From: Candidatus Saccharimonadota bacterium
Lineage (GTDB): Bacteria > Patescibacteriota > Saccharimonadia > Saccharimonadales > Saccharimonadaceae
Direction of reading: 5' to 3'
DNA length: 64,000 nucleotides
Assembly: GCA_028286285.1 (NCBI GenBank)
Contig: JAQBRV010000004.1
Coordinates: 124,001 to 188,000 of the forward strand
The notes beneath the pieces are model-generated. The model did not search any database and was not told the DNA's origin. It was given only the letters and a program-made list of their open reading frames with translations. The position numbers and the translations under genes are program-made. Position 1 is the first letter of the stretch; each line of letters opens with the position of its first letter. Positions 55,587 to 60,140 of the stretch are shown here, in pieces.

Positions 55587-56279
55587 ATGTCCTATCTCCC
55601 TTATATCGCCGACGACCTACTGCTGTTTTACACTAAAGATGTACTTGATAGGGTTATGGTGGCGTACACCGAGTCTGAAGCAAAAATCCATTCCAATGTC
55701 ATCGATCCTTTCTCTGCACTGTTCGATGCAATGCGTCAGGGGATTACCGTTGAGGATTGGTTGAATCAAGAGCGATCGCGGCAGGTACAGAAAACTTTGC
55801 AGAATGCTGTTGGCGATTTCCATCAAAATATACTCGGATCGATCGACGGCTGGCACAATCCAGGCCGAGGCGGCGGATATGATCTTATCAGCCACGAGAA
55901 CAAGATTCTTGTAGAAATTAAGAACAAACACAATACGCTGAACTCTAGCGGCGCAGAGAGCACCTACGGCAAATTAACACGGTATATTGATAGCGACGAA
56001 TACAAAGATTTTACTGCGTACGTGGTATTTATCGTGCCAAAATCACCCTCAGACTTTAATGGATTATGGTCACCGAACCAAGAGAAAATGCCCCTTCGCG
56101 AAGATGTTCGCAAGATAGACGGTGAAAGCTTCTATAAGCTCGTGACGGGCTATGATGACGCACTTGAGAATCTCTTCGACATATTACCAGATATCATTGC
56201 GCAGGAACTAAAGACACAATCACTTGAAAGTCATGAAAAATTTATTCTAAAAGAATTGTTTACAAAAGCATATAAATAA
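55587..56279 (+). CDS. Type II restriction endonuclease, Eco47II family
   Basis: 230 aa. The PD-(D/E)xK site is visible as GGGYDLISHENKILVEIKNK followed by HNT (about residues 93-115); VEIKNKHNT is typical of Eco47II/Sau96I-type enzymes, whose known members cut GGNCC or GGWCC. Specificity here is inferred only. TAAAAT (55575-55580) ends 6 nt before the ATG: leaderless. The matching methyltransferase follows 39 nt downstream with its own promoter. Confidence 0.85.
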   Translation: MSYLPYIADDLLLFYTKDVLDRVMVAYTESEAKIHSNVIDPFSALFDAMRQGITVEDWLNQERSRQVQKTLQNAVGDFHQNILGSIDGWHNPGRGGGYDLISHENKILVEIKNKHNTLNSSGAESTYGKLTRYIDSDEYKDFTAYVVFIVPKSPSDFNGLWSPNQEKMPLREDVRKIDGESFYKLVTGYDDALENLFDILPDIIAQELKTQSLESHEKFILKELFTKAYK

Positions 56280-56318: not shown

Positions 56319-57614
56319 ATGAGCAATTTATTTACTATATCTGATGCGGCAGATAAAATAGGGGTTTCGGTAGATACAATCCGTAGGTGGGAGAAAAAAG
56401 GACTCATCAAATCAGTTCGCTCTGAGCTGAATCATCGCCTTTTTTCTATCGATGAAATAACACGTATTCACGACAAGGTATCTGGTAGTGATACTGACGA
56501 AAATAACTACAGAATAATCAAAGCAAACAAGCCGAGCAAATACACTGCAATCGATCTTTTTGCTGGCGCAGGGGGAACGGCGCTAGGGCTTGAAAATGCT
56601 GGCCTTCAGCATGTTCTCTTGAATGAATTTGATAAACACGCCGCGGCGACACTTCGTCAAAATCGGCCGAAATGGAATGTCAGCGATGAAGATGTTCACG
56701 AGGTAGATTTTACACAGTGGCGCAACAAAGTAGATGTTGTGGAAGGCGGTTTTCCATGTCAGTCATTTAGTTACGCTGGTAAAGGCCGCGGTTTTGAAGA
56801 TACCCGGGGTACACTGTTTCATGAATTTGCACGAGCCGTAAAAGAAGTTCAGCCTAAAATTGCGATCGGCGAGAATGTTCGTGGCCTTTTAACCCATGAC
56901 GAGGGTCGCACTCTCAAAACAATGGTAAAAATATTGCAAGATCTCGGCTACAAAGTTGCATACAAAGTCATGAGATCTCAATATCTCGATGTACCGCAGA
57001 AGAGGGAACGACTTGTTATTATCGCTGTCAGAAATGATCTTAAAACTCCTATTCTCTTTCCGAAAGAGCGCGATTATACGATATCGATCAAGGAAGCGAT
57101 TGGGGATCGACCGCAGAGCGAGGGTCAACAATATTCTGAGCGTAAGCATGAAATCATGAAGCTGGTGCCTCCTGGTGGCTACTGGCGTGATCTTTCAGAC
57201 GAACTGCAGAGAGAGTATATGAAAGCGAGCTACTTTCATACTGGTGGCAAGACGGGTATGGCAAGACGTTTATCATGGGATGAGCCGAGCCTAACGCTGA
57301 CTTGTAATCCTGCGCAAAAACAGACCGAGCGATGCCACCCTGAAGAAACACGACCTCTCAACGTGCGCGAGTATGCGCGCATTCAGACATTCCCTGATGA
57401 ATGGCAATTTTCTGGTTCAACATCAGCCCAGTATAAACAAATTGGTAATGCAGTGCCTGTTAACCTCGGTTACTACATGGGTCTCGCTGCGATTACCATG
57501 CTGAACGGCAAAACACATGACGATCTTATAGAGATGGAGCCAATCGAGCCAGTGCTAGATGAAAGCGTTCAAGAATTAGAGCAACCTGCACTCATACCCT
57601 TGTTAGATTTTTAA
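56319..57614 (+). CDS. DNA (cytosine-5) methyltransferase with N-terminal MerR-type HTH
   Basis: 431 aa from ATG 56319 (TATAAT at 56307-56312, 6 nt before: leaderless). Residues about 1-50 are a MerR-like helix-turn-helix (FTISDAADKIGVSVDTIRRW, then EKKGLIK). The methyltransferase has motif I FAGAGGTALGLE, motif IV GGFPCQSFSYAGKGRGF with catalytic Cys, ENVRGL, QKRERLVI and motif X IGNAVPVN. It should protect the sites cut by the neighbouring enzyme. The HTH may repress its own or the restriction promoter (inference). Confidence 0.9.
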   Translation: MSNLFTISDAADKIGVSVDTIRRWEKKGLIKSVRSELNHRLFSIDEITRIHDKVSGSDTDENNYRIIKANKPSKYTAIDLFAGAGGTALGLENAGLQHVLLNEFDKHAAATLRQNRPKWNVSDEDVHEVDFTQWRNKVDVVEGGFPCQSFSYAGKGRGFEDTRGTLFHEFARAVKEVQPKIAIGENVRGLLTHDEGRTLKTMVKILQDLGYKVAYKVMRSQYLDVPQKRERLVIIAVRNDLKTPILFPKERDYTISIKEAIGDRPQSEGQQYSERKHEIMKLVPPGGYWRDLSDELQREYMKASYFHTGGKTGMARRLSWDEPSLTLTCNPAQKQTERCHPEETRPLNVREYARIQTFPDEWQFSGSTSAQYKQIGNAVPVNLGYYMGLAAITMLNGKTHDDLIEMEPIEPVLDESVQELEQPALIPLLDF

Positions 57615-57837: not shown

Positions 57838-57861
57838 ACTAGTAACACCAACCTTACTAGT
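57838..57861. promoter_or_regulatory. Perfect inverted repeat, probable operator
   Basis: ACTAGTAA (57838-57845), 8-bp spacer, TTACTAGT (57854-57861). It abuts a -10-like TATATT (57861-57866) before the ParB-like gene, so a dimeric regulator bound here could block that promoter. Confidence 0.5.
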
Positions 57862-57895
57862 ATATTATTAAATTAAGAAAGCCGAGAACTGTATA

Positions 57896-59263
57896 ATGTT
57901 AAATACAATAAACTGGGATACTAAAGCCGTAAAAGTTGTGAATTTAAAACTCGATCCTAAAAATGTACGTCTAGATATTGATAATCCATCGCAGGACGCA
58001 ATCATTCAAGATTTATTCAAAAATGAGGATGCGATGCAGATCGTCGAGAGTATTGCACAGAACGGGTTCTTTAATCAAGAAATGCCAATTATTACCGAAG
58101 AAGGTGGGGACACCATTGTTCTGGAAGGTAACAGGCGTATCTCGGCTCTCAAGGCGATCTTAAACCCCAAGCTCGTGCCACAGCAAGAAGCTAAATTAAA
58201 GGAGCTAATTGAAGAGATGGGGGACATATCGATTCTCGAAAGTGTAGAGGCTAAGGTAGCCCCTGATAGAGAAGACGCATCCAAGATTATTGCTTCTATT
58301 CACACGGTACAATCACGCAAAGCGTGGAAGCCCTTAAGGCAAGCGTATTTTTATTATGCGCAAATCGCAGAAGGCCATAAAACGGTGAAGCAACTCGGTG
58401 AAGAGTATAGGAATGTTAATATTCCAGAGTTTGTAAAAATGTGGGAAATGCATAACTTGATGAAATCAGTCGATTATAAAGATCCAGTGCTTCAGCGTAA
58501 GGTAGCTTCAAAAAACTTCCCCATTTCAACACTGGAGCGTCTATATAACAATGCAGAGTTTCAGGATCTTGCCAAGATTAAGTTTGATGAATATGGGCAG
58601 ATCAGTATTGGGGCGAAAGATGAAGACTTTAACGCACTATTATCTAAGATTGTCAATGACATTAATGACAAGAAAATTGACACACGTGTATTGAACAAAA
58701 AAACTAGCGAAAGCTATATGTCCTACATGCAGGAAATTAAGGATTTAAGAATCAAGGACGCTGCTAAGCCTAGAAAGGCAGCTGATTTTCATCCTCAGCC
58801 AGTTGTGCCGCCAGCAAAAACCAAATATGGCATTGTACCTAATGACATCGTATGTACCATTAACTATCCTGCCGTAAAGCGAGTGCTGGAGGAGTTAAAA
58901 ACCTTAAACTATAGAAAATATCCGAACGCAACCCACGATTTACTAAGGTCATTTCTTGAGTGTTCCCTAAAGGCCTACTTTCATCATAAAAGTATCGTAG
59001 TTACTCCCAATAGGGGTACTTATGTCCAGTTGCAGCATGTATTAGATGAAGCTAAAACACATTTCGCAACAGTAAACGTTAGCTTAGTTCAAGTTGTGCA
59101 GAAAATGACAGATAAGAACACACAAAATTCGTACATGTATTCGACTGATTATTTGAACGCCGTCAACCATAACCATCAGATATTCTCAAAACACGATGAC
59201 GTAGAAGCCGCTTGGGATCAGATGGAAAATCTGATACGATATATATTAGATCCACCGCAGTAA
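57896..59263 (+). CDS. ParB/Srx-fold N-terminal domain protein
   Basis: 455 aa. N-terminal ParB-like domain (about residues 12-95): LKLDPKNVRLD, IAQNGFFNQEMPII and VLEGNRRISALKAI, the last being the nucleotide-binding box of ParB-N proteins. A helical middle follows (KTVKQLGEEYRNV), and a C-terminal region with YPNATHDLLRSFLECSLKAY and a final Asp/Glu/Trp-rich helix. Not chromosomal ParB: no CTP-box architecture with HTH as in Spo0J and no parA beside it. It is cotranscribed with the D12 methyltransferase. AT-rich codons indicate transfer. Confidence 0.7.
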   Translation: MLNTINWDTKAVKVVNLKLDPKNVRLDIDNPSQDAIIQDLFKNEDAMQIVESIAQNGFFNQEMPIITEEGGDTIVLEGNRRISALKAILNPKLVPQQEAKLKELIEEMGDISILESVEAKVAPDREDASKIIASIHTVQSRKAWKPLRQAYFYYAQIAEGHKTVKQLGEEYRNVNIPEFVKMWEMHNLMKSVDYKDPVLQRKVASKNFPISTLERLYNNAEFQDLAKIKFDEYGQISIGAKDEDFNALLSKIVNDINDKKIDTRVLNKKTSESYMSYMQEIKDLRIKDAAKPRKAADFHPQPVVPPAKTKYGIVPNDIVCTINYPAVKRVLEELKTLNYRKYPNATHDLLRSFLECSLKAYFHHKSIVVTPNRGTYVQLQHVLDEAKTHFATVNVSLVQVVQKMTDKNTQNSYMYSTDYLNAVNHNHQIFSKHDDVEAAWDQMENLIRYILDPPQ

Positions 59264-59273
59264 GCGAAAAAAA

Positions 59274-60140
59274 ATGATCAAAACAAAAACACAACGAAAA
59301 TATTTACTAACACCATTACGCTATCCGGGCGGTAAGACCTCCTTGTTCGAGTTCTTCGACGAGGTGATCAAGCGTCATAATTGGCGCGATATGACCTACA
59401 TAGAACCATATGCAGGTGGAGCCGGGGCTGCCATATCCTTGTTGTTACTTGAGCGTGTAGAGCGTATTGTTATTAATGACTACGATCCTGCGATCTATTC
59501 ATTCTGGAAAGCAATTACTGAGCGTACAGACGAGTTTATATATTTAGTAGAAAATACACCTATAACCATCGAAGAGTGGGATATTCAGAAACAAATATAT
59601 AAAGCTGCTGATATAGCTGACCAACTTCGCCTAGGATATGCAACGTTCTTTCTAAATCGAACAAATAGGTCGGGCATAATGAACGCGGGTCCTATCGGAG
59701 GAAAGGCTCAATCTGGAGAATGGAAAATCGACGCACGTTTCAATAGGAAGGCTTTGATTGAAAAGATAAAACTGATCTCGCTTTATAGCGATCGGATCAC
59801 GGTTCTTAACGAAGACGGGGTGGATGTAATCACGGCATATGCGAATGATCCTAGAAGTTTCTTCTACGTTGATCCACCATACTTTGTTAAAGGTACGGAT
59901 TTGTATCTCAACGCTTTTAAACTACAGGATCACCAAAAATTAGCTAATTCTTTAAGTAAACATGCTGAAGCAAAGTGGCTCTTAAGTTATGATAACGAGA
60001 AAGAAATATTGGATCTTTACCCCACGCGTGAGTATAGAGACTTCGACTTAAAATATTCAGCTAATCATAACTCAAAGATGGGGTCAGAATTGATGATTCT
60101 TTCTAACACCATTGACTCAGCCATTATTGATGCAATCTAA
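59274..60140 (+). CDS. D12-class N6-adenine DNA methyltransferase (Dam-like)
   Basis: 288 aa. PLRYPGGKTSLFEFF (SAM binding/motif X), YIEPYAGGAGAAISLL (motif I), VINDYDPAIYSFW and the catalytic DPPYF (motif IV, about residue 205). D12 enzymes methylate adenine, often in GATC-type sites; specificity unknown. It starts 10 nt after the ParB-like gene without a proper ribosome site. No restriction gene of its own is visible. Confidence 0.88.
   Translation: MIKTKTQRKYLLTPLRYPGGKTSLFEFFDEVIKRHNWRDMTYIEPYAGGAGAAISLLLLERVERIVINDYDPAIYSFWKAITERTDEFIYLVENTPITIEEWDIQKQIYKAADIADQLRLGYATFFLNRTNRSGIMNAGPIGGKAQSGEWKIDARFNRKALIEKIKLISLYSDRITVLNEDGVDVITAYANDPRSFFYVDPPYFVKGTDLYLNAFKLQDHQKLANSLSKHAEAKWLLSYDNEKEILDLYPTREYRDFDLKYSANHNSKMGSELMILSNTIDSAIIDAI

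What the first reader, a model, noticed from the sequence alone, without database searches (positions are those of the whole stretch)
57838..60140. AT-rich ParB-like protein plus D12 adenine methyltransferase: candidate undescribed defence or anti-restriction pair
A 455-aa ParB-N protein (EGNRRISALK box) with an unrecognised helical C-terminus is followed 10 nt later by a Dam-like methyltransferase; there is no matching restriction gene. A perfect operator-like repeat (ACTAGTAA-N8-TTACTAGT) lies at its promoter. The pair is AT-rich against its surroundings and sits beside an Eco47II-type restriction-modification pair, as in a defence island. ParB-N domains can have nuclease or NTP-binding activity, so the pair could act as effector plus self-marking methylase.
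Basis: partly seen in the sequence, partly recalled or inferred. Interest (0 to 1): 0.65.

Follow-up and report, generated by a model that had tools for sequence, protein, structure and literature searches.

The report
PD-λ-5 phage-defence pair in a Saccharibacterium
The two genes are a copy of an already described two-gene phage-defence system (PD-λ-5), found here in a bacterium with a very small genome beside a restriction system; its larger protein joins a ParB-like sensor to what looks like an RNA-cutting HEPN toxin domain, which suggests, but does not prove, that it shuts down infected cells.

Summary
In detail: a 455-aa ParB-like gene (57896-59263) is followed after 10 nt by a D12 adenine methyltransferase (59274-60140), AT-rich and next to an Eco47II-type R-M pair. 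It is not undescribed. Both genes match PADLOC models of PD-λ-5 (A 2e-47, B 7e-110), a broad phage-defence system found experimentally in E. coli in 2022. The 774-kb genome is most likely a Saccharibacterium; the closest relative found is another one (68%/77% identity).

The 'unrecognised' C-terminus folds as a HEPN domain. An R-x3-E...H set, ordered as in the PrrC/RloC anticodon-nuclease triad, is complete in 20 of 21 diverse homologues. Every full-length A examined in Patescibacteria and Bacteroidota (22 genomes) has a D12 methylase in its locus. In Patescibacteria 6 of 8 pairs adjoin a restriction gene, of five kinds, and one Bacteroidota pair lies inside a type I R-M operon. Best model: B marks self DNA; A senses unmarked DNA and its HEPN RNase aborts infection. 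Identity, linkage, fold and conserved residues are shown; RNase activity and the methylation trigger are inferred. The palindrome is within chance and not conserved. New member of a known kind; the mechanistic lead and R-M linkage are the useful additions.

The parts
57896..59263 (+). PD-λ-5 A: ParB-like N-domain, middle helical region and C-terminal HEPN-like domain, 455 aa
   Evidence: PADLOC PD-Lambda-5_A E 2e-47; AlphaFold model and Foldseek
57917..58270 (+). ParB-N / ParB-Srx fold domain (residues 8-125) with N-x-R and GNRR motifs
   Evidence: Foldseek to Noc 7ol9 E 6.9e-5 and ParB-CDP 6sdk E 1.1e-4; N23, R25, G78, N79, R80, R81 in 21 of 21 homologues
58331..58666 (+). Middle helical region (residues 146-257), at the position of the ParB DNA-binding domain
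   Evidence: Foldseek alignments to ParB/Noc run over 225-280 columns; DNA binding is inferred
58868..59248 (+). HEPN-like six-helix domain (residues 325-451)
   Evidence: Foldseek of the domain alone: 4nqf prob 0.99, 1o3u 0.94, 1wol 0.92, all HEPN
58946..58960 (+). R351-x3-E355 of the candidate catalytic set
   Evidence: R in 20/21, E or D in 21/21 full-length homologues
59168..59170 (+). H425 of the candidate catalytic set
   Evidence: 21/21 full-length homologues
59274..60140 (+). PD-λ-5 B: D12-class N6-adenine DNA methyltransferase, 288 aa
   Evidence: PADLOC PD-Lambda-5_B E 7e-110; PF02086 E 3.3e-24
59871..59882 (+). Catalytic DPPY motif of B (residues 200-203)
   Evidence: invariant in 7 aligned homologues
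57838..57861 (.). Inverted repeat ACTAGTAA-N8-TTACTAGT upstream of A; possible operator, not shown
   Evidence: present but within chance and not conserved
55587..56279 (+). Neighbour: Eco47II-type restriction endonuclease (context, not part of the pair)
   Evidence: PF09553 E 7.2e-57
56319..57614 (+). Neighbour: MerR-type HTH fused to C5-cytosine methyltransferase of the R-M pair (context)
   Evidence: PF00376 E 2e-12, PF00145 E 1.3e-83

Best explanation
The pair is a PD-λ-5 phage-defence system. B methylates an (unknown) adenine motif on the cell's own DNA. A is a ParB-like protein, expected to dimerise: its N-domain and middle region engage DNA that lacks the B mark, such as incoming phage DNA, and this brings its C-terminal HEPN domains together as an active RNase, probably against tRNA or other translation RNA, which stops growth and aborts infection. 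In many Patescibacteria it sits beside an R-M system as a second line, much as PrrC backs EcoprrI. Shown by computation here: family identity, A-B linkage, HEPN-type fold, conserved R-x3-E...H set, R-M proximity. Shown by others: the family defends E. coli against phages. Inferred: RNase activity, RNA target, methylation as the gate, dimer-triggered activation. (Confidence in family identity alone is about 0.95; the figure below is for the whole mechanism.)
For: PADLOC matches for both genes. The E. [quoted passage not shown] HEPN fold from two models of the same protein. R351/E355/H425 kept in 20, 21 and 21 of 21 homologues, the order of the mutationally supported PrrC/RloC triad, Arg-x3-Glu-x36-52-His in RloC (PMC2610378). 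B present with every full-length A: 8/8 Patescibacteria, 14/14 Bacteroidota (13 adjacent, 1 in the locus in another order), phage AS1, a Kosakonia conjugative plasmid. ParB-like proteins without the HEPN domain (L025, L031, L032, L049, L050, L052, L053) had no B homologue beside them, which fits B as protection against the HEPN part. Restriction genes beside the pair: Eco47II (window), a type II REase (L028), type I HsdMSR (L029), HpaII (L020), Tsp45I (L022, L026); inside hsdM-hsdS-[A-B-x]-hsdR in L071.
Against: No activity, motif or trigger was measured. The classical HEPN Rx4-6H signature is absent; the E-to-H gap (66-72 in most) is longer than in PrrC (31) or RloC (36-52). Foldseek E-values for the C-domain are weak (0.25 and above) although the top four ranks are all HEPN. 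One homologue (L048) lacks R351 and E333. Most Bacteroidota pairs are not next to R-M genes, so an R-M partner is not required. The text of PMC9519451 that I could read does not state whether PD-λ-5 itself scored as abortive. B alone in L036 is cut by the contig end, and A is split in L039 and L040.
Confidence: 0.5

Rival explanations
1. A conventional two-gene restriction-modification system: A is a DNA endonuclease (ParB-like nuclease) that cuts unmethylated DNA, B is its cognate methylase.
For: Constant MTase partner; DNA-nicking ParB/Srx proteins are reported (cited in PMC12839542); the finders called it RM+Abi and used an mrr-deleted host.
Against: No known DNase fold recognised in A; the enzyme-like conserved set lies in a HEPN domain; Pfam finds no REase.
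Confidence: 0.2
2. Guard of the neighbouring R-M system (PrrC-like): the RNase is held inactive by the R-M complex and released when a phage inhibits restriction; B only tunes it.
For: 6 of 8 patescibacterial pairs adjoin a restriction gene and L071 has the pair between hsdS and hsdR, as PrrC lies within a type Ic R-M locus (PMC3710099).
Against: Five different kinds of R-M (Eco47II, HpaII, Tsp45I, a RAMA-methylase type II, type I) make one specific protein contact unlikely; most Bacteroidota pairs and the plasmid pair have no R-M neighbour; the E. coli system protects when cloned by itself.
Confidence: 0.15
3. Toxin-antitoxin-like module in which B restrains A by direct binding, methylation being incidental.
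For: Close gene coupling; A without B not seen among full-length copies.
Against: B keeps its MTase motifs, DPPY included, in every copy aligned, which points to selection for catalysis.
Confidence: 0.1
4. Anti-restriction or phage/plasmid housekeeping gene pair (partition, self-methylation) with no defence role.
For: Members occur on phage AS1 and on a conjugative plasmid.
Against: The tested family member defends E. coli (PMC9519451); no ParA or phage genes near the window pair; HEPN domain.
Confidence: 0.05

Closest known systems
PD-λ-5 (Vassallo et al. 2022, PMC9519451; PADLOC PD-Lambda-5_A/B)
   Same: Same two proteins in the same order, both matching the family models by a wide margin
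   Different: Distant sequence; in a Saccharibacterium chromosome beside R-M genes, not in a P2-like prophage
PrrC/EcoprrI and RloC anticodon nucleases
   Same: C-terminal HEPN domain with R-x3-E...H order behind an NTP-binding, DNA-linked domain; can lie inside a type I R-M operon
   Different: ParB-like N-domain in place of ABC ATPase; own D12 methylase; longer E-to-H gap; no RNase activity shown
ParB/Noc CTPase clamps
   Same: N-domain fold and N-x-R plus GNRR motif
   Different: No ParA partner seen; carries HEPN; CTP binding not tested
HEPN-R-M associations of Anantharaman et al. 2013 (PMC3710099)
   Same: That survey already notes HEPN fusions to ParB-like domains in R-M settings, and a HEPN family (MAE_28990) in operons with ParB and DNA methylase genes
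   Different: The PD-λ-5 family is not named in the passages I read; in MAE_28990 the HEPN and ParB genes are separate

Membership tests
PD-λ-5 | Protein A of the family | tested here: met
   24 of the 25 families listed for A are PD-Lambda-5_A models, best E 2e-47
PD-λ-5 | Protein B, the D12 adenine MTase of the family | tested here: met
   PD-Lambda-5_B E 7e-110, invariant DPPY
PD-λ-5 | A and B adjacent on one strand | tested here: met
   10-nt gap; same in homologues
PD-λ-5 | Protects against phages | not testable with these tools
   shown only for the E. coli member (PMC9519451)
HEPN superfamily RNase | Helical HEPN fold | tested here: met
   Foldseek 4nqf 0.99, 1o3u 0.94, 1wol 0.92; E-values weak
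HEPN superfamily RNase | Rx4-6H motif | tested here: not met
   no conserved R 5-7 positions before H425 in 21 homologues; N or H at -4 instead. Partial loss of this motif is known in the superfamily (PMC3710099)
PrrC/RloC anticodon nuclease | R-x3-E...H triad | tested here: inconclusive
   R 20/21, E/D 21/21, H 21/21, but the E-to-H gap is 51-110, mostly 66-72
PrrC/RloC anticodon nuclease | ABC ATPase domain | tested here: not met
   N-domain is ParB-like
ParB partition protein | ParB-N fold with NTP-binding box | tested here: met
   CTP binding itself not tested
ParB partition protein | ParA partner | tested here: not met
   no ParA among the neighbouring genes examined

The most novel reading that the evidence does not exclude
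A self/non-self sensor not described before: a ParB-type NTP-dependent DNA clamp that loads only where B's methyl mark is missing, and whose closure pairs two HEPN domains into an RNase, so that the methylation state of DNA is turned directly into an RNA-cleaving suicide response.
Probability: 0.3. Interest if true: 0.65.

Novelty: new member of a known kind. Interest (0 to 1): 0.35.

Why it matters
PD-λ-5 is widely annotated, but of the eleven papers naming it in the searched library none has a title or abstract about its mechanism. The HEPN assignment, the conserved R-E-H set and the constant A-B linkage turn 'mechanism unknown' into a few point mutants and one methylome experiment. It also shows that bacteria with genomes under 1 Mb, a group reported to carry CRISPR-Cas rarely, hold this system together with R-M genes.

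Tried and rejected
Palindrome as operator: within chance, not conserved. Pfam/NCBIfam for A: nothing above cut-off; the G6PD_C match at E 0.0036 is below its cut-off and taken as chance. Sequence search of PDB with A or its profiles: no meaningful relative. Relatives in IMG/VR viral contigs: four scans found none. Rfam and tRNA scans of the window: empty. An eight-sequence alignment was too divergent for pattern scans. Empty-site comparison in relatives failed: the flanking 175-aa gene and the permease are themselves rare in relatives. Orphan-methylase reading rejected: B sits with A in all full-length homologous loci. Prophage reading not supported for the window: flanks include a DUF2207 membrane protein, xanthine/uracil permease, PspC and SRAP.

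Full report
What is there. They are at about 40% GC in a window of about 50%. An Eco47II-type endonuclease and a MerR-fused C5 methylase stand upstream. The inverted repeat exists, but one like it is found in about 9% of shuffles of that intergenic region and it has no counterpart upstream of homologues.

What organism. The genome is 774 kb and 98% complete. The best match found for A in the reference genomes is Candidatus Saccharibacteria UBA6209 (68% for A, 77% for B), and the window's MetK is 63% identical to that genome's and 68% to that of a genome of its own family. G251, of the same phylum, has a contig of the same length and content as the Doudnabacteria record found by name. I take the organism as a Saccharibacterium of the Patescibacteria; this is inferred, not read from a label.

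What system. PADLOC gives PD-Lambda-5_A (E 2e-47) and PD-Lambda-5_B (E 7e-110). PD-λ-5 was found by functional selection in E. coli; [quoted passage not shown] So the pair is not undescribed.

Conserved neighbourhood. Full-length A with B: 8 of 8 Patescibacteria (window, L020, L021, L022, L023, L024/L029, L026, L028) and 14 of 14 Bacteroidota, 13 adjacent and one (L045/L070) in the order B, short ParB, partner, A. In three of these the call is partial: B of L036 is cut by the contig end, and A is split in L039 and L040. The pair is also on Marinobacter phage AS1 beside the integrase and on a conjugative Kosakonia plasmid. Among 380 genomes drawn from the phylum 7 had a match to the A model, and among 396 Bacteroidota 18. 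Window and UBA6209 share DNA similarity only over 57896-60115 in the compared stretch, so the pair behaves as a cassette. A decayed copy (38 aa of A, 149 aa of B) remains in a genome of the same family (L002).

Link to restriction. A restriction gene stands beside the pair in 6 of 8 patescibacterial loci: Eco47II (window), a PADLOC type II REase with an N6/N4 methylase carrying a RAMA domain (L028), type I hsdMSR (L029), HpaII (L020) and Tsp45I (L022, L026). Of the other two, L021 has a PD-(D/E)XK_1 protein. In a Bacteroidota genome the pair lies between hsdS and hsdR (L071). Most other Bacteroidota pairs have no such neighbour, so the link is common in one phylum but not general. I did not measure the background rate, so this is a count and not a test.

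How A is built. AlphaFold with four sequences gives mean pLDDT 77. The N-part matches Noc and ParB-CDP structures (E 7e-5 to 5e-4); N-x-R and GNRR are invariant in 21 homologues. The C-domain folded alone (pTM 0.71) has HEPN proteins as its four best matches with probability 0.92-0.99, though E-values are weak. R351, E355 (or D) and H425 are kept in 20, 21 and 21 of 21. This is the order of the PrrC/RloC triad supported by mutation (PMC2610378), but the E-to-H gap is longer and the general HEPN Rx4-6H motif is missing. HEPN fusions to ParB-like domains, and a HEPN family in operons with ParB and DNA methylase genes, were noted in 2013 (PMC3710099), so the architecture is of a known kind.

How it probably works. 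B marks self; A senses unmarked DNA through its ParB part and activates its HEPN RNase, aborting infection. Family identity, linkage, fold and conserved residues are shown; RNase activity, the RNA target and the methylation gate are inferred. Rivals are a plain R-M enzyme, a PrrC-like guard of the neighbouring R-M, and a toxin-antitoxin pair with direct binding.

Verdict. Ordinary as a system, useful as a mechanistic lead: new member of a known kind, interest 0.35.

Noticed in passing
L005:96-2331 (phage Wphi gp98-gp96), L007:3965-6062, L030:4891-6942, L070:4173-6214, L032:1745-3927, L025:654-2672: A sister two-gene module: a short ParB-like protein without HEPN domain plus a 275-370 aa partner. 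The partners are homologous to one another; Wphi gp96 and the L030 partner had no Pfam or PADLOC match. In L030 and L070 it sits with a complete PD-λ-5 pair. Possibly an unnamed module, present in P2-like phages.
   Followed up: partly
L002:1501-2090: Decayed PD-λ-5 remnant in another genome of the window's family: 38 aa of the A C-terminus and 149 aa of B.
   Followed up: partly
L071:1067-11050: PD-λ-5 pair inserted between hsdS and hsdR of a type I R-M operon, with an extra 292-aa gene of no Pfam or PADLOC match between B and hsdR.
   Followed up: partly
L020:2747-4420: A 557-aa protein fusing RadC (JAB) to a C5-cytosine methylase, next to an HpaII-type endonuclease; an unusual fusion.
   Followed up: no
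L048 (A homologue, G561): PD-λ-5 A in which R351 is aligned with W and E333 with S while H425 is kept; its B is present, so it may be an altered or inactive effector.
   Followed up: no
L077:4001-7013 (Vibrio campbellii plasmid): A ParB-like match (141 aa of the N-domain) lies near a B homologue on the opposite strand, a different gene order from the usual pair; full length of the ParB-like gene not determined.
   Followed up: no
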